Source: Verrucomicrobiota bacterium | Lineage (GTDB): Bacteria > Verrucomicrobiota > Verrucomicrobiia > Verrucomicrobiales > DEV007 | Assembly: GCA_027618625.1 (NCBI GenBank) | Contig: JAQCER010000297.1 | Span: forward strand, 1 to 5,424 | DNA length: 5,424 nt | Reading direction: 5' to 3' | Part shown: in pieces, positions 1-5,341 of the stretch | Position numbering within the stretch: position 1 is the first letter of the stretch | Layout: every line of letters starts with the position of its first letter | Position numbers and translations under genes: made by a program | Notes under the pieces: model-generated | Told to the model about the DNA's origin: nothing | Databases searched by the model: none | What the model saw: only the letters and a program-made list of their open reading frames with translations

Positions 1-37
1 CTTTGCTTTTCGATCTCCTTGCCCGCGCCAAATCCCC

Positions 38-223
38 CTATTTTACGTTGCGAATCCCGGATAGAGCCTTTTTAGCGATCTCCAGGCCCTCGGCGCCGTC
101 ATGGCTTAGCGTGACGGCGTAGCCATTGTCCCCGAGGAGCTTGGCCACCGTCTTGGCGAGAATGACATCGTCCTCGACGACGAGTAACGTTCCACTCGTC
201 TCAATCGGATACTCAAGTTTCAT
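38..223 (-). CDS. Truncated response-regulator receiver domain (CheY-like fragment)
   Basis: A 61-residue product from the ATG at 223. It has the opening half of a receiver domain: a hydrophobic strand and acidic cluster LLVVEDD (residues 13-19, the Mg-binding acids of CheY-like proteins), then helix 1, GYAVTLSHDG and helix 2 (about 43-52). It then ends with SGIRNVK and a TAG stop. By CheY spacing (D13 to D57) the phospho-acceptor Asp should fall near residue 63, so it and everything after are missing. The 37 visible bases beyond the stop do not encode the usual DLVLLD-type strand in any frame, so a single frameshift does not explain the loss. The start overlaps the kinase stop by 11 bases, suggesting translational coupling. 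An alternative ATG at 241 has GGGAG directly against it, which is too close. This is either a decayed remnant of the kinase's partner or a small non-phosphorylatable protein. Confidence 0.7.
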   Translation of the reverse strand: MKLEYPIETSGTLLVVEDDVILAKTVAKLLGDNGYAVTLSHDGAEGLEIAKKALSGIRNVK

Positions 224-1406
224 AATTGTGCTGTGATGCATCTCCCGCCCAAGGTAAAGTGAAAACGAATCGTGCACCGCCGCCGGATGCCTGTTCGTAG
301 ACAATCGAGCCCCCCCACTGCTCAACAGTCATTCGGCAAAAGTACAGCCCCAGCCCCATTGCACCTCGATTGGTGGTGCCTTGGGTGAAAGGGTCAAACA
401 ATCCGCCGACCAGTTCCGGCTCCACGCCAGGCCCGGCGTCTTCCACTTGCACCTGCATCCCTTCATCCAGAGCCAGCAGCCGGACGATCACCACCGAATC
501 TCTCGGCGCGTAACGTAGCGCGTTGAGCACCAGATTCTCCACTGCCCGGACGAAGGGTTCCAGTTCGCCGATTACTTTGCGCTCGCCAGCGACGACGCCC
601 GTCAGGCCATCCTCAAGTAGGATCGAGACGGACCGTCTCAAAGCCTGATTCAAATGCATGTTGACGACATACTCTCCCCCCCTGACAAACTCACCTACCA
701 CCTCTGCACTCCCGCGATTACGACTAAGTCGCGACAAATCCGACGAGAATACTTCGGTAATCGATTTGATGAGGCTGCGCTGACGACGCGCGGCCTCAAG
801 GGCGAGCGAGGCGGCGGCCTTTACCTGCTCATCATCAGACGTCGCAAGTAATTCCAGATTCAACAACACTGCCCCAAGCGGATTATTGAGATCGTGCACG
901 ATACATCTTAAAAGGACATCCTTTTTCTGCACCTCCCTGCTCAACTGGCGGTGCTCCAGCGCTTTTTCGTTGGCCCGCTGGGTCAGCATTTGAATTTCCT
1001 CGAAGCGTCTTCCCATGAACTGAATCACCAGGAGACCCGCTCCGTTGGCGCCGTGCATTGCAATCGCCTCAAGGTGCAATTCAGTCAGTTCATTGCCACT
1101 CGCATCTGGTACCGCTTCCGTCCAAATGCCAGATCGAACCGGCACGGTAGGCGCTTCCTTCCACAGCGGCCGGGCCACCTCCTTGACGAAGCAGGTCAGG
1201 AATGGAGACTCCGCCAACGCCACATCGATACCGCCACCATAGATGGATTCGAACCAGTCAGGAACCGCCCCACGCACTCGGAGCGAAGCATCTTCGACCG
1301 CTTCCAGAACGAGGTAATCAAGCGCTGCCAGGACGCTGTCGAGAGATCCGGCAGCGCCCTCTCGAACCGATTCGTCACTAAACGGTTGAGGCGAATCAGG
1401 CGGCAT
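213..1406 (-). CDS. Soluble sensor histidine kinase (HisKA/HATPase_c) with PAS-like N-terminus
   Basis: A 397-residue histidine kinase that would autophosphorylate on His171 and pass phosphate to a receiver Asp. No signal peptide or membrane span is visible, so it is probably cytoplasmic. Residues about 20-130 look like a degenerate PAS-type sensor (WF near 51, a SPFL stretch near 67-70, SGIWTE near 92-97). Residues 133-168 form a charged helix leading into the H-box IVHDLNNPLG (169-178). The ATPase domain has the N-box ENLVLNALRYAP (290-301), G1 box EDAGPGVE (322-329), F-box LFDPF (336-340) and G2 box GAMGLGL (348-354), all intact. The start lies 14 bases after the GTPase stop, with a weak purine-rich GAAAGAAAG site. 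Its position directly after a GTPase and before a receiver fragment suggests that it couples the GTPase module to phosphotransfer. Its ligand cannot be read from the sequence. Confidence 0.93.
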   Translation of the reverse strand: MPPDSPQPFSDESVREGAAGSLDSVLAALDYLVLEAVEDASLRVRGAVPDWFESIYGGGIDVALAESPFLTCFVKEVARPLWKEAPTVPVRSGIWTEAVPDASGNELTELHLEAIAMHGANGAGLLVIQFMGRRFEEIQMLTQRANEKALEHRQLSREVQKKDVLLRCIVHDLNNPLGAVLLNLELLATSDDEQVKAAASLALEAARRQRSLIKSITEVFSSDLSRLSRNRGSAEVVGEFVRGGEYVVNMHLNQALRRSVSILLEDGLTGVVAGERKVIGELEPFVRAVENLVLNALRYAPRDSVVIVRLLALDEGMQVQVEDAGPGVEPELVGGLFDPFTQGTTNRGAMGLGLYFCRMTVEQWGGSIVYEQASGGGARFVFTLPWAGDASQHNYET

Positions 1407-1420
1407 ATCTTTCTTTCAGA

Positions 1421-1951
1421 CTAAAGGAACGCTTCTGTGGTTGGCTCGTCAGGGGCGATCATCATTTCTGTGATGCGGACGAACGCCTCCTCTACATTCT
1501 CCCCAGTCTTCGCACTGGTTCGGAACACCTTCACCTTGCCACGGACTTCGTCCAGATGCGCTTCGGCGATGTCCCATTGGTCTTGCAGGTCAGCCTTGTT
1601 GAGCAGCAGCAGAGTTGGAATATCCGAATAGAACTCTCCCAGGCGTTCCATGTGCTGCTGGGTGAGTCGCAAGGTTTCTGCGCGGGTTCCATCTGCCACA
1701 AACAGCACCCCGGAGGCCCCTTTGATAAATGACAGCCGCAGCCCCTGAAAATCATCTTCCCCAGCAAGGTCCCAAACCATCAGCAAAACTTCGCAATCGC
1801 CAATCTCGACCGTCTTCTGACTGATCATCACGCCTACCGTCGAAAGATATTTTTCGGAAAAAATCCCTTTCACGTATTTGCTGACCAAGATCGTCTTCCC
1901 GACACCAAACGACCCGATGAGACAGAGTTTCTTCTTGAGCTTCTTTGTCAT
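1421..1951 (-). CDS. Rab/Ras-like small GTPase (prokaryotic Ras superfamily)
   Basis: A 176-residue single-domain GTP-binding switch protein. All five G motifs are visible: P-loop GSFGVGKT (13-20), switch I Thr38 in YLSTVGV, G3 DLAGED (61-66), G4 NKAD (118-121) and G5 SAK (146-148). The FSEKYLSTVGV stretch is strongly Rab-like. The residue matching Ras G12 is Phe15 and that matching Ras Q61 is Glu65, so intrinsic hydrolysis may be slow and depend on a partner. There is no C-terminal cysteine for lipidation; the protein ends TTEAFL. I chose the ATG at 1951, which gives the compact Lys-rich start MTKKLKKK and has GGGGG 10 bases upstream. An in-frame ATG at 1984 would add 11 residues and is possible. 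The gene follows a Roadblock-like gene and precedes the histidine kinase, an arrangement reminiscent of MglA/MglB pairs, though this protein is Rab-like rather than MglA itself. Confidence 0.93.
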   Translation of the reverse strand: MTKKLKKKLCLIGSFGVGKTILVSKYVKGIFSEKYLSTVGVMISQKTVEIGDCEVLLMVWDLAGEDDFQGLRLSFIKGASGVLFVADGTRAETLRLTQQHMERLGEFYSDIPTLLLLNKADLQDQWDIAEAHLDEVRGKVKVFRTSAKTGENVEEAFVRITEMMIAPDEPTTEAFL

Positions 1952-2023
1952 CCTGATTGCGCCCCCATCTCGGTGGTCAGGCATGCTTCCAGAATGGGAA
2001 GCACTCTGACGAATGGCTCCACG

Positions 2024-2791
2024 TCACCCGCAAAAATTCGCCAGTGCATCGTGGTAATTGCTGTGCAATGTCTCCATTACCTCGTCGAGCATGTCATTGA
2101 CCTTAGAAGTAGGATTGCCCGCCACGGCTGCCGCGATGAGCATCATGGGACTGGTTCGAATCAGCACCGTCTGTCCGCCCATGGAAAAACTGCTGAGCGA
2201 ATCATCGGCATCGAGATCGAAGGAATCGCGGGCAAAGTCTTCGATTGCCGTCAGCATGCTGGATACCAGATCCGCGTCACGGGCATGTTCAGAATCACGC
2301 GAAGCATGAACCAGCAACAACCCGGTTTCCCGGTGGATCAGCAGGACTTCGTCCACCGAGCAGACCACCGAATTTGCCAGAACGATCTCGGCGTAGGAGC
2401 GTTGGCTTGTGAATGCCTGCCACCTCCACTTGAGCCGCTTAAGACTGAATACATCGGCCGCCTGGCTTTCGACCGATGCCACCAGACTCTGGAGCGCGCT
2501 GGTGATCGACTTGCGGATCACCCGGCCCAGAACGGGATAGACAATATCAATCACTATTTTAGGATTCTCCCTGAGAGTGTCGAGGACAACCTGTTCGATC
2601 GCAGGCTTCAACGCGTTGCCCAACTCCCGGTCCGACGCCTTGCCAAGTTTTCTGCCGCCGTCAGCCGATGCGACCTGCGGCAAAGAAATCGGTTTCACTG
2701 ACGTCGCCACATACGTAGGGACGCCACCGCTATTCGGAAGCCGTTTGGGCAAGGATGCTACCGCGGGCTGCTGGAGATCGGTCGCTGACAT
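2024..2791 (-). CDS. Roadblock/LC7-like protein related to N-terminal module of OmpA-family proteins, lacking OmpA
   Basis: A 255-residue protein. After a variable Pro/Ser-rich start (1-50) comes a helical segment ending in PKIVIDIVYPVLGRVIRKSI (77-96), then a basic LKRLKWRWQAF patch (117-127). Next is a core around SVDEVLLIHRETGLLLVHA (145-163), then DADLVSSMLTAIEDFARDSF (172-191), beta-like stretches near 198-223 and a final helix (231-253). From memory this order matches the N-terminal module of proteins annotated as OmpA-family, but no peptidoglycan-binding OmpA domain and no signal peptide are present. The strand-helix-strands-helix pattern after residue 145 resembles Roadblock/LC7 folds, which regulate small GTPases. 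That fold call is inference. The start is supported by GGAAGG just upstream. The gene sits 25 bases after the coiled-coil gene and before the GTPase, the expected place for a GTPase partner. The biochemical role is not established. Confidence 0.82.
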   Translation of the reverse strand: MSATDLQQPAVASLPKRLPNSGGVPTYVATSVKPISLPQVASADGGRKLGKASDRELGNALKPAIEQVVLDTLRENPKIVIDIVYPVLGRVIRKSITSALQSLVASVESQAADVFSLKRLKWRWQAFTSQRSYAEIVLANSVVCSVDEVLLIHRETGLLLVHASRDSEHARDADLVSSMLTAIEDFARDSFDLDADDSLSSFSMGGQTVLIRTSPMMLIAAAVAGNPTSKVNDMLDEVMETLHSNYHDALANFCG

Positions 2792-2816
2792 ACCTTCCTG
2801 CGCGGCCCGGCAACGA

Positions 2817-3242
2817 TCACTTGCGGAGGTCGTCGACCACTTTTTGCAGTTTGTCCGCGAGCTGACGTCGCGCCACGTTGCGGTCGTTGCTTTCCTCTTT
2901 CTCCTTCTGCACGAGCGCCTTCAGACCGGCAACGCCCGCTTGCATCTCAGCGGTCAGATTCTCCTTCAATGCATCAATCTCGCTTCGTAGTGACGCCTCA
3001 AGAGCAGCAAAACGATCGTCATAGTGCGCCATCTGTTCACCGAACAGAATGTCACGAATCTTGCTTACGCTTTCGCCCTCGGTCTGAGCCGACTTTTTCC
3101 CTGACGTTTGGTTATCCATGGACTTGGTTTTCTTTTTCGTTAAAGCTCGTTGCTTGGGCAGCTGTTTCTTAGGCAGCTGTTTCTTGCTGGCAGCCGCCTT
3201 CGCGGCCGGTTTGGCAACGGATTTCTTCTTGGCTGCTTTCAT
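2817..3242 (-). CDS. Basic-tailed coiled-coil protein with LFGEQM motif, GTPase-operon associated
   Basis: A 141-residue protein in three parts. Residues 1-42 are a Lys/Ala/Pro-rich basic tail like histone H1-type tails, containing a tandem KKQLP repeat. Residues 43-60 are a polar linker. Residues 61-141 are a charged helix with coiled-coil character that opens with RDILFGEQM (63-71) and HYDDRFAALE (73-82). I recognise the LFG-Q-M plus RFA-LE pattern from small coiled-coil proteins encoded beside Roadblock/GTPase genes, but no function is known to me. The start at 3242 is chosen because GGAGAG lies 9 bases upstream and a candidate promoter precedes it. The GTG at 3311 would sit almost on the predicted transcription start, and the internal ATG at 3119 has no ribosome binding site. 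It is the first gene of the five-gene block. The basic tail could bind DNA, RNA or acidic membrane lipid. Confidence 0.8.
   Translation of the reverse strand: MKAAKKKSVAKPAAKAAASKKQLPKKQLPKQRALTKKKTKSMDNQTSGKKSAQTEGESVSKIRDILFGEQMAHYDDRFAALEASLRSEIDALKENLTAEMQAGVAGLKALVQKEKEESNDRNVARRQLADKLQKVVDDLRK
3156..3185. repeat. In-frame 15-bp tandem repeat encoding KKQLP twice
   Basis: Two adjacent 15-bp units, gggcagctgtttctt and aggcagctgtttctt, differ at one base. They lie inside the coiled-coil gene and encode KKQLP KKQLP in its basic tail (residues about 20-29). This shows that the tail has grown by in-frame duplication. Confidence 0.85.
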
Positions 3243-3251
3243 TTGAGTGGA

Positions 3252-3257
3252 CTCTCC
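3252..3257 (-). promoter_or_regulatory. Ribosome binding site of coiled-coil gene (GGAGAG)
   Basis: GGAGAG on the minus strand lies 9 bases before the ATG at 3242. It decides the start of the coiled-coil gene in favour of the form that includes the basic tail, because neither the GTG at 3311 nor the ATG at 3119 has a comparable site. Confidence 0.6.
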
Positions 3258-3323
3258 AGTAAGAACACTTTTGGTCTCACACGGACGCGGTGAATGCCTC
3301 ATGGCACCCACAAAACAGAATTG

Positions 3324-3352
3324 ATTTTAGGGCAAATTAAAGGACTCCGCAA
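3324..3352 (-). promoter_or_regulatory. Candidate sigma-70-type promoter of the coiled-coil/Roadblock/GTPase/kinase operon
   Basis: Reading the minus strand, TTGCGG (3352-3347) is followed 17 bases later by TAAAAT (3329-3324), matching the -35 hexamer at 3 of 6 and the -10 hexamer at 5 of 6 positions with ideal spacing. The start of transcription would fall near 3317, giving a leader of about 75 bases before the ATG at 3242. The -35 lies inside one copy of a 10-bp tandem repeat. The call is by eye only. Confidence 0.45.
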
Positions 3353-3362
3353 GACTCCGCAA
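3343..3362. repeat. Tandem 10-bp direct repeat, 2 copies of gactccgcaa
   Basis: Two exact, adjacent copies at 3343-3352 and 3353-3362. On the minus strand each reads TTGCGGAGTC, and the downstream copy supplies the candidate -35 element. A spacing of about one DNA turn would put both copies on the same helix face. It may be a regulator site or a slippage duplication. Confidence 0.85.
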
Positions 3363-3372
3363 GCGATCATCC

Positions 3373-3396
3373 AGACATTCAGACATTCGGACATTC
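3373..3396. repeat. Tandem 8-bp direct repeat, 3 copies of (a/g)gacattc
   Basis: Copies at 3373-3380, 3381-3388 and 3389-3396 differ only in the first base (agacattc, agacattc, ggacattc). They lie about 20 bp upstream of the candidate -35, where activators often bind. The 8-bp period does not match a helical turn, so simple slippage is also possible. Confidence 0.85.
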
Positions 3397-3428: not shown

Positions 3429-4313
3429 CTAAGAAGGATTCACGCCAGATACAGTCTCAGAAATGAGGCTACTATTGGAGATGACGATGAAGCCATCACC
3501 GTCTTCAAGCCTGGTGTTCAGCGGACCAACGGAAACCACCGTCATGGCGCGCTCGCCGATGATCAATTCGACACCGGGCTTAAATTGATCCCGCACATAC
3601 ACACCCGATACGATCGCGTGGGCCAAGGGGCGAAGTCCCAGCCCAAGAGCCAGTCCGATGGCGAGGCCGAGTCCAGAGAGGACGATGACGACCGTGTCGT
3701 GAATCAATTTCGTATCCACCCCGAGTTCGCCCACGGCGATGATCAGTACCAGCACCATGATGAACGCGAAGAGCAGGTTGCTAACGGTAGGCCCATATTC
3801 GAGATTGAGCCGTTCACACGACTTTCGTGTCAGATTGCGAGCGAGATCCGCGACGAGATATCCGACCACCGCGATCAATCCGGCGGTGATGAACTTGGGC
3901 AGCAAGTTGATGATTCCATTCGCCGGATCCCTGAGCATCGGCAAATCAGTATAGTCTGCCGCGGACTTGATGAAGTAGAGCAGCACTCCAAAGAACAGCC
4001 CTTTGGCAAGGACAACCGTAAACCCTCCAGTCAGACCAGCGGACGTCAACATCTTCTGAATACCATCTTTGCCGACCATGTCGTCGAGACCGATCTTCTT
4101 GCCCACTACGAGAACGATCTTTTGCAGGATTTTCGATAAAACGTATCCCACCAGGAGGATCACCAGACCACCCAACACCTTCGGCAGAAGATTCGCCCCC
4201 CCAGTAACCATTTCCAGAAAGGCTGTGCGCAGCGATCCCAGCACCTCTTGAATGAAGCCAAGCGGAGCCTGGGCCAGGAAGGGACTATTAATGCGGCACG
4301 CAAATAGATTCAT
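3429..4313 (-). CDS. Small MscS-family mechanosensitive ion channel with TM-helix repeats
   Basis: A 294-residue inner-membrane protein, likely a tension-gated channel releasing solutes on osmotic downshock. Two similar hydrophobic segments each begin LLPK (42-68 and 137-160), as in TM-helix repeat proteins. Further spans lie near 97-116 and 177-196. Residues 204-238 resemble the pore helix of MscS, with the Gly/Ala-rich run GLGLAIGLALGLGL (214-227). The following beta domain has FKPGVELIIGE (244-254), TVVSVGPLNTRLEDGDGFIVISN (258-280) and ends soon after, so the C-terminal alpha/beta vestibule of E. coli MscS is absent. The ATG at 4313 has only a weak GGAAA site close by. GTG at 4244 (V24) is another possible start. 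The gene lies 120 bases downstream of the sigma-factor pair, with palindromes in the gap, so it may be regulated separately. Confidence 0.88.
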   Translation of the reverse strand: MNLFACRINSPFLAQAPLGFIQEVLGSLRTAFLEMVTGGANLLPKVLGGLVILLVGYVLSKILQKIVLVVGKKIGLDDMVGKDGIQKMLTSAGLTGGFTVVLAKGLFFGVLLYFIKSAADYTDLPMLRDPANGIINLLPKFITAGLIAVVGYLVADLARNLTRKSCERLNLEYGPTVSNLLFAFIMVLVLIIAVGELGVDTKLIHDTVVIVLSGLGLAIGLALGLGLRPLAHAIVSGVYVRDQFKPGVELIIGERAMTVVSVGPLNTRLEDGDGFIVISNSSLISETVSGVNPS

Positions 4314-4386
4314 TTTCCAAAAAATGGATCATGCTCCACAGAGTTTGGTATAAGTTGCTCGAATGTATTTAAGGGCCGCATTAATA
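4286..4386. repeat. Perfect 12-bp inverted repeat flanking the channel gene start
   Basis: The arm tattaatgcggc (4286-4297) lies within codons 6-10 of the channel gene. Its exact reverse complement gccgcattaata (4375-4386) lies upstream of the start, with 77 bp between them. The arms could pair in the transcript around the start codon or bind a dimeric or looping regulator. Chance cannot be excluded. Confidence 0.6.
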
Positions 4387-4392
4387 AATGAG

Positions 4393-4402
4393 TTCATATG
4401 AA
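4393..4402. repeat. 10-bp palindrome ttcatatgaa upstream of channel gene
   Basis: A perfect palindrome in the gap between the small sigma-linked gene and the channel gene. Its size and AT-rich centre are compatible with a half-operator, but no matching second copy was seen. Confidence 0.3.
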
Positions 4403-4417
4403 TCAATCGAGCACGTC

Positions 4418-4431
4418 GCAGTCGCGACTGC
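4418..4431. repeat. 14-bp perfect palindrome gcagtcgcgactgc just after a stop codon
   Basis: The palindrome begins 2 bases past the TAA stop of the 111-residue gene. As RNA it could fold into a 5-bp stem with a CGCG loop. There is no T-run after it on the minus strand, so it does not look like a Rho-independent terminator. An operator or RNA-processing hairpin is possible. Confidence 0.5.
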
Positions 4432-4433
4432 TA

Positions 4434-4769
4434 TTACCGTTTTTTGGAATGGGTCGTGGTCGTGGATGGTTTTCTAAGAGGCGGTTCACTTGGAATGTCT
4501 TCCGAAACCTTAACGTCAGAGTTTCGCTCGATAAAAGCCCTTAGCATCGCAACCAATAACTCCGCCAGGGCCGCAGCAAAACTTCGAAAGAAAAAAGTCG
4601 CCGTATCCTTGATGACGGCTTCGTGCATGGCTTTTTCCACGATCCGCTCCACTCGCGCCTCATCAGGAACGTTCACAGCGATTCCGCGCTCGTTCGCTTC
4701 AGCCACCGCATCGCGAAACAATTGATCGACCTCGGAGTCGAACGAATCGAATTCCAGGTCACTGATCAT
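4434..4769 (-). CDS. Small protein coupled to ECF sigma factor; possible non-classical anti-sigma or partner
   Basis: A 111-residue protein that I do not recognise as a named family. It starts with an acidic stretch (residues 1-20, Asp/Glu-rich), followed by a helical region with ERIVEKAMHEA (41-51). A hydrophobic to amphipathic helix spans about 57-80 (TATFFFRSF...LLVAMLRAFI). The Thr/Lys/Pro-rich tail ends in SKKR. The protein has no cysteine, so the zinc-binding HxxxCxxC anti-sigma motif is absent. The hydrophobic helix contains Arg and Glu residues, so a true membrane span is doubtful. Its ATG overlaps the sigma-factor stop by four bases (ATGA), which implies translational coupling and near-equal synthesis. 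That position is typical of anti-sigma factors and is the only support for that role. A chaperone or accessory subunit is equally possible. Confidence 0.75.
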   Translation of the reverse strand: MISDLEFDSFDSEVDQLFRDAVAEANERGIAVNVPDEARVERIVEKAMHEAVIKDTATFFFRSFAAALAELLVAMLRAFIERNSDVKVSEDIPSEPPLRKPSTTTTHSKKR

Positions 4770-5341
4770 GCTTCGGGCTCCTTTCCTTCACGAATCGCCA
4801 TGTAGATTCTTTTGAATTCTTCAAGCGCATGGTAGAGGCGCATTTTGGTCGCACTCAATCCTAAATCTGAAACCTCTGCAATCTCTTGAAGGCTCAGGCC
4901 CGTGACGTACTTCAGCACGATCATCCGGCGCTGATCCTCACTCAGGAGCGCCATCGCCTTCTCAAGTTCCTCACTCAATGACATATCATCGATTGGAGAC
5001 TCACTGGCCACCAACGACTCTGACAAATCGTCGGTGTTGACACCCTCACGGTCCCTTCGCTTGGCCAATTGCTTCCTGCGTGTCAGGCAAAAGTTGTAAA
5101 CGATTCTAAATAGCCAGGTTTTAAACGCTGCCCTGCCCTCAAACTGATGCAGCTTGTGGAAGACGCGCAGAAACGTGTCCTGGCAGATCTCCTCGGCATC
5201 TTGTATACTTCCGATCATTTTTACGCTGGTGTTGTAGACGATTGATTCATAGCGACGTACGATCTCCCTGTAAGCATCAAGCTTATAAGGGAGCTCCTTC
5301 TGGCACATCGCTACAAGTTCATCCTCTGGGAGGGAGGACAA
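4766..5341 (-). CDS. ECF-type (sigma-70 family, group 4) RNA polymerase sigma factor
   Basis: A 191-residue sigma factor with only regions 2 and 4, directing RNA polymerase to a specific promoter set. Region 2 covers about 22-95: YREIVRRYESIVYN (24-37), the core-binding stretch DAEEICQDTFLRVF (48-61), and FEGRAAFKTWLFRIVYNFC (67-85) for -10 recognition and melting. A variable acidic linker follows (100-125). Region 4 covers about 126-180: LLSEDQRRMIVLKYVTGLSLQEIAE (132-156), then a helix-turn-helix ending in SATKMRLYHALEEFK (163-177). The start is uncommon: TTG at 5341 preserves the normal family opening DELVAMCQ. An ATG at 5308 would cut into it, and an in-frame stop lies 27 bases above the TTG. 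No clear Shine-Dalgarno site is seen. The gene overlaps the downstream small gene by four bases. Confidence 0.93.
   Translation of the reverse strand: MSSLPEDELVAMCQKELPYKLDAYREIVRRYESIVYNTSVKMIGSIQDAEEICQDTFLRVFHKLHQFEGRAAFKTWLFRIVYNFCLTRRKQLAKRRDREGVNTDDLSESLVASESPIDDMSLSEELEKAMALLSEDQRRMIVLKYVTGLSLQEIAEVSDLGLSATKMRLYHALEEFKRIYMAIREGKEPEA

What the first reader, a model, noticed from the sequence alone, without database searches (positions are those of the whole stretch)
38..3352. Five-gene module joining a Rab-like GTPase, a Roadblock-like protein, a coiled-coil protein and a two-component kinase
Five minus-strand genes with gaps of 25, 72 and 14 bases and one 11-base overlap encode a coiled-coil protein, a Roadblock/LC7-like protein, a small GTPase, a histidine kinase and a receiver fragment. 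Roadblock proteins regulating small GTPases are known from MglB-MglA polarity control. A histidine kinase in the same operon suggests a link between a GTP switch and phosphotransfer that is, to my knowledge, little characterised.
Basis: partly seen in the sequence, partly recalled or inferred. Interest (0 to 1): 0.72.

Follow-up and report, generated by a model that had tools for sequence, protein, structure and literature searches.

The report
Roadblock-GTPase switch driving a histidine kinase
Four neighbouring genes in a likely verrucomicrobial genome encode a coiled-coil protein, a protein predicted to fold like the Roadblock regulators of GTPases, a Rab-like GTPase and a histidine kinase; relatives of the set lie together in other bacterial phyla and would likely pass a GTPase signal on to gene control, a layout described from genomes in 2014 for which I found no laboratory test.

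The parts
2817..3242 (-). coiled-coil protein, 141 aa, with the KIRDILFG motif; relatives of its partner gene carry variants of it
2024..2791 (-). Roadblock-fold protein, 255 aa; the close relatives P0002-P0006 are 26-32 residues longer in all, and against L006 the window frame ends early by a one-base frame difference
2027..2362 (-). predicted Roadblock/LC7 fold, residues 144-255
1421..1951 (-). Rup-like small GTPase, 176 aa; G1, G3, G4 and G5 motifs present, Glu in place of the catalytic Gln after DxxG
213..1406 (-). histidine kinase, 397 aa (HisKA and HATPase_c), no hydrophobic stretch that looks like a membrane helix
1017..1343 (-). predicted PAS-like N-terminal domain of the kinase, residues 22-130, leading into a helix at 132-187
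978..980 (-). codon of kinase Gln143, the glutamine kept in 28 of 29 aligned output N-termini
69..223 (-). first part of an NtrC-type response regulator gene; the rest lies on contig C3
1..68 (.). end of an insertion-sequence-like repeat (24-nt end at 45-68); contig end

Best explanation
The genes match the published Group 1 Rup layout, and their Roadblock-fold protein, with the coiled-coil partner, is predicted to set the nucleotide state of the Rab-like GTPase, which would then likely bind the PAS-like N-terminus of the histidine kinase and so control phosphorylation of the adjoining NtrC-type sigma-54 regulator. Shown: gene order, shared occurrence in genomes, and motifs. Predicted: the Roadblock and PAS folds, and a kinase without membrane helices. 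Inferred: every contact and the direction of flow. I further infer, after the 2014 authors, that the conserved output glutamine (Gln143 here), at the start of the helix that joins the PAS-like domain to the kinase core, completes the GTPase active site, which lacks its own glutamine; the output would then be both effector and off-switch. In this genome the regulator gene is probably split by a mobile element, so this branch may be dead here.
Against: No complex was predicted or measured, and a shared fold shows no function. Both models have low pTM (0.48 and 0.47), the kinase one from a seven-row alignment. The Roadblock-like gene is not adjacent in 4 of 17 GTPase loci (L002, L075, L076, L077); in L076 the contig start prevents the test. 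Two of 17 (L007, L052) have no output beside the GTPase. Nine weaker Roadblock hits (1.0e-22 to 1.5e-5) lie in genomes without a GTPase hit, so a Roadblock/coiled-coil pair can exist alone. L011 has Arg where Gln is expected; the Nostoc output matches the shared N-terminal profile only weakly (4.5e-4). The window protein lacks the membrane helix and OmpA domain of many relatives, so the input signal is unknown. The regulator gene is interrupted and the Roadblock frame shortened here, which could mean decay.
Confidence: 0.55

Rival explanations
1. The flow runs the other way, as proposed for conservons: the kinase senses and the GTPase is the output, with the Roadblock protein as its activator of hydrolysis.
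For: Kinase, Roadblock protein and GTPase are also joined in conservons, and the 2014 authors proposed GTPase output there because conservons lack a response regulator.
Against: In L006 and L011 an intact response regulator gene follows the kinase, and in other loci the same position holds a cyclase, an HD-GYP protein or a sigma-54 activator with the same N-terminal domain; those look like end effectors, so the shared domain is better read as the receiver of the GTPase signal.
Confidence: 0.2
2. Two unrelated modules, a Roadblock/GTPase pair and a two-component system, merely share an operon.
For: Roadblock and GTPase genes lie apart in 4 of 17 loci; the coiled-coil/Roadblock pair occurs without a GTPase hit in 9 genomes.
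Against: 15 of 17 GTPases are directly followed by an output gene; 14 of those outputs were aligned together over the N-terminal domain, the Nostoc one being the weakest. This repeats in records titled Acidobacteria, Mariprofundus, Thiothrix, Mesorhizobium and Nostoc.
Confidence: 0.1
3. In this genome the locus is decaying and does nothing: the regulator is split by a mobile element and the Roadblock frame is shortened.
For: Both contig ends carry the same 24-nt repeat in inverse orientation next to the same 7-nt sequence CTAAAAA; the Roadblock frame stops early against its close relatives.
Against: The GTPase and kinase frames are intact with their motifs, 80% and 72% identical to L006; the predicted Roadblock fold is complete before the early stop; a single-base difference in a draft assembly can be an error.
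Confidence: 0.25

Closest known systems
Group 1 Rup GTPase systems (Wuichet and Sogaard-Andersen 2014, PMC4316618; sections 16 and 18 read, passages of others)
   Same: GTPase without the G3 glutamine, coiled-coil gene, 'unknown-domain' gene often carrying a membrane helix and OmpA, and an output gene (typically a c-di-GMP enzyme or a kinase) with an invariant glutamine in its N-terminal region
   Different: Here the unknown-domain protein is short, has no OmpA part and is predicted to be a Roadblock fold; the kinase is followed by an NtrC-type regulator; relatives add sigma-54, class III cyclase and HD-GYP outputs. The paper's text does not name Verrucomicrobia among the Group 1 or Rup taxa (section 16).
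Actinobacterial conservons / AGPS (Cvn; PMC13343842 outline and abstract, PMC4316618 passages)
   Same: Kinase, Roadblock protein and small GTPase encoded together
   Different: Conservon GTPases are MglA type, the kinase carries membrane helices and a C-terminal LPxR motif as the 2014 paper describes, and no response regulator is included
MglA-MglB polarity switch of Myxococcus and Thermus
   Different: MglB homologues match Pfam Robl_LC7 (PMC4316618 passage), this protein matches no family; here an output enzyme is encoded next to the GTPase
Eukaryotic Rab GTPases with longin/Roadblock exchange factors (TRAPP, Mon1-Ccz1) and Ragulator
   Same: GTPase is closest by sequence to Rab23 among solved chains; the Roadblock model resembles Ragulator and TRAPP subunits
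   Different: Bacterial, and linked to two-component outputs

Membership tests
Group 1 Rup system | Ras-superfamily GTPase with recognisable G motifs | tested here: met
   Pfam Ras 5.4e-31; GSFGVGKT, DLAGED, NKAD, TSAKT located
Group 1 Rup system | no catalytic Gln in the G3 motif | tested here: met
   Glu in the window; 0 of 17 loci have Gln
Group 1 Rup system | adjacent coiled-coil gene | tested here: met
   2817-3242; 12 of 17 loci, partial in L009
Group 1 Rup system | adjacent gene with the conserved unknown domain, described as often (not always) followed by a membrane helix and OmpA | tested here: met
   The domain aligns with OmpA-bearing proteins of L007-L010. The optional helix and OmpA parts are absent from the window protein, as from P0002-P0012 and L012 by length and hydropathy
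Group 1 Rup system | output gene with an invariant Gln in its N-terminal region | tested here: met
   Gln143; 28 of 29 rows. The published logo could not be viewed, so that it is the same Gln is inferred
Group 1 Rup system | placement in the published Rup tree | not tested
Roadblock/LC7 (Pfam Robl_LC7) | a-b-b-a-b-b-b-a fold | tested here: met
Roadblock/LC7 (Pfam Robl_LC7) | match to the Pfam family model | tested here: not met
   0 of 17 scanned proteins of this family match Robl_LC7: window, L007-L012, L052-L055, L058, L060, L065, L066, P0002, P0010. Hence called Roadblock-fold, not a member of that Pfam family
Actinobacterial conservon | kinase with membrane helices | tested here: not met
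   Highest 19-residue hydropathy 1.32, below the 1.6 cut
Actinobacterial conservon | no response regulator in the operon | tested here: not met
   NtrC-type regulator follows
Two-component system | HisKA, HATPase_c and a receiver with output domain | tested here: met
   the receiver gene is whole in L006, interrupted in this genome
Roadblock regulator of a GTPase | binds the GTPase and alters exchange or hydrolysis | not testable with these tools
   No complex prediction or assay was available

The most novel reading that the evidence does not exclude
Group 1 Rup systems are a general plug-in G-protein switch of bacteria: a Roadblock-fold receptor, wall-anchored through OmpA in some lineages and soluble in others, loads a Rab-like GTPase; one shared PAS-like domain reads the GTPase and lends it the missing catalytic glutamine, so each output (kinase, sigma-54 activator, cyclase, HD-GYP phosphodiesterase) is at once effector and timer.
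Probability: 0.3. Interest if true: 0.8.

Novelty: new variant of a known kind. Interest (0 to 1): 0.5.

Why it matters
The paper that named Rup GTPases called them uncharacterised and left two questions open: what the conserved unknown domain is, and what supplies the missing catalytic glutamine. A predicted Roadblock fold for the domain and a glutamine kept in 28 of 29 output N-termini turn both into direct tests with small proteins. A short version such as this one, with no membrane parts in sight, is the easiest place to run them.

Tried and rejected
Sigma-54 promoter motif near the operon: 6 matches in the window against 8.7 expected, 21 in L006 against 24.0 expected; rejected. The one-mismatch match (window 3050-3065) lies antisense inside the coiled-coil gene.

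MglA membership: not followed, because the best 60 of 841 solved chains matched are Rab-family proteins and no MglA chain is among those 60; no tree was made.

Kinase N-terminus by VIA: the list was filled by kinase cores. The Foldseek rows that span it, LOV-kinase chimeras, have rmsd of 9.8-22 because of domain arrangement, so the PAS reading rests mainly on the order of strands and helices in a model from seven rows.

Coiled-coil profile: I gave the L011 row out of frame, so that row is wrong; the L011 coiled-coil gene is still found in its own frame. The profile's matches in L056-L064 are weak (1.3e-11 to 5.8e-4) and coiled coils match each other easily. The kinase-N-terminus search with the window kinase gave 3 proteins, itself included, so I searched again with the L054 output (14 proteins, itself included; 13 sigma-54 activators and 1 cyclase by precomputed domains).

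The 5-of-387 overlap uses a Roadblock cut-off chosen after seeing the scores; at E <= 1e-3 the Roadblock count is 14 of 387. The GTPase profile held sequences from three of the five genomes, not from G168 or G324; whether the unnamed proteins of the Roadblock profile come from these genomes is not known. If the two were independent the chance of the same five would be 1.4e-11, without correction for relatedness. L012 was left out of the glutamine count because its output is partly masked by N; L066 and L067 are near-identical, so the 17 loci and 29 rows are not all independent.

Papers: searches listed no experimental Rup paper that I could recognise and no Roadblock assignment of the unknown domain; for these I saw listings with the start of each abstract. 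PMC4316618 was seen in sections 16 and 18 and in passages, PMC13343842 in outline and abstract, PMC13015309 and PMC4915359 in passages. The library lacks most subscription journals, and supplements could not be read.

Full report
What is in the window. Five minus-strand frames lie at the stated places with the stated spacing. Pfam names the GTPase (Ras 5.4e-31) and the kinase (HATPase_c 1e-21, HisKA 1e-07) and gives a partial receiver below cut-off; the Roadblock-like and coiled-coil proteins match no family above its cut-off, and NCBIfam names neither. The window belongs to a 941-contig draft genome, 71% complete. The nearest relative found, L006, is titled Verrucomicrobiia bacterium, so the host is inferred to be verrucomicrobial.

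The fifth gene. In L006 the kinase is followed by a 490-aa regulator with receiver, sigma-54 and Fis domains. In the window's own genome that protein is found in two pieces: residues 2-56 in the window (65% identity) and 46-490 on contig C3 (88%); no single contig holds a whole copy among the 35 matches. The window end and the C3 start carry the same 24-nt sequence, one mismatch, in opposite orientation, each next to CTAAAAA. The 24-mer, with up to 3 mismatches, occurs 12 times in the genome, 6 forward and 6 reverse, and 0 times for the reversed control; coordinates and locus lengths put all 12 within about 100 bases of a contig end. This is what an insertion sequence with inverted ends and a short target duplication would leave. 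The 'receiver fragment' is thus the first part of a probably interrupted NtrC-type gene. The element's own genes were not sought.

The GTPase and its partners elsewhere. The GTPase alone fetched 7 loci. I examined 17 GTPases in all: 2 in this genome, 7, 5 from other genomes of the phylum and 3 from plasmids found with the Roadblock domain. The Roadblock-like gene is adjacent in 13 of 17, the coiled-coil gene in 12 of 17 (partial in L009), an output enzyme directly downstream in 15 of 17. Some of these loci were found through the Roadblock domain, which favours adjacency, which did not use it, adjacency is 7 of 7. On a Mesorhizobium plasmid the record itself names an OmpA family protein, a Rab family GTPase and a cyclase in a row. 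Outputs: kinase plus sigma-54 regulator (L006, L011, and the window in broken form), kinase (L002, L012), kinase followed by a receiver/lactamase-fold protein (L077), hybrid kinase (L009, Nostoc L065), class III cyclase (L008, L066, L067), HD-GYP (L010), sigma-54 activator (L054, L075, L076). HisKA is below its cut-off in L002 and L077, HATPase_c above it.

Shared occurrence. In 387 genomes of the phylum, the GTPase profile hits 5 at E <= 1e-20. The Roadblock profile hits 14 at E <= 1e-3; the five strongest (3.5e-69 or better) are exactly these five genomes, in five families. The other nine, all of one family in the window's order, are weak (1.0e-22 to 1.5e-5) and have no GTPase hit at that cut; there a weak coiled-coil match lies beside, overlapping or within the Roadblock frame, fused in L058. 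In G168, G257 and G324 a GTPase lies on a different contig from the Roadblock gene, so both genes are kept even when apart.

The glutamine. None of the 17 GTPases has Gln after DxxG (13 Glu, 2 Asp, 1 Arg, 1 Ser), and 28 of 29 aligned output N-termini have Gln at the position of kinase Gln143; the exception is L011 with Arg. The kinase model (mean pLDDT 77, pTM 0.47) places this residue at the start of a long helix (132-187) that joins a PAS-like domain to the kinase core; Foldseek's best matches over the whole length are LOV-kinase chimeras, with high rmsd.

What is known. Wuichet and Sogaard-Andersen described this four-gene set as Group 1 Rup: coiled-coil gene, unknown-domain gene often with helix and OmpA, Rup gene lacking the G3 glutamine, and an output with an invariant N-terminal glutamine that they noted in connection with a glutamine supplied in trans; they state that no Rup interactions had been tested. 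So the module fits that kind, and the glutamine idea is theirs. New here, as far as the searches reach: the predicted Roadblock fold of the unknown domain, the sigma-54 branch, the shared occurrence in this phylum, and the short form beside a kinase and NtrC regulator. The fold makes this protein a candidate regulator of the GTPase, as MglB is for MglA; whether it speeds hydrolysis or exchange is open.

Verdict. A described but untested kind of system, in a variant whose parts are small and apparently soluble.

Noticed in passing
window 1-68 and L079 (contig C3) start: Insertion-sequence-like ends with a 24-nt inverted repeat, found 12 times in the genome at contig ends, break the NtrC-type regulator gene.
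   Followed up: partly
window 3429-5341: An ECF sigma factor, a small 111-aa protein overlapping it by 4 bases, and an MscS-like channel protein lie upstream and keep the same order in L006 (94, 76 and 92% identity); no relative of the three was seen in the other loci compared.
   Followed up: partly
L056-L064: Nine genomes of the same order carry a weak Roadblock-like match with a weak coiled-coil match beside it, fused in L058, and no Rup GTPase hit at E <= 1e-20: perhaps a GTPase-free form of the pair.
   Followed up: partly
L078 (contig C205) 2281-4021: A second GTPase-kinase pair in the same genome, with no coiled-coil or Roadblock match on its 6.4-kb contig; it may share the single Roadblock protein found.
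   Followed up: partly
L077 6338-9484: In genome G257 a second GTPase is followed by a kinase and then a receiver protein with a beta-lactamase-superfamily domain (PF12706).
   Followed up: partly
window 3343-3396: Short tandem repeats (three copies of 13 nt at spacing 8, two of 10 nt) in the gap before the coiled-coil gene.
   Followed up: no
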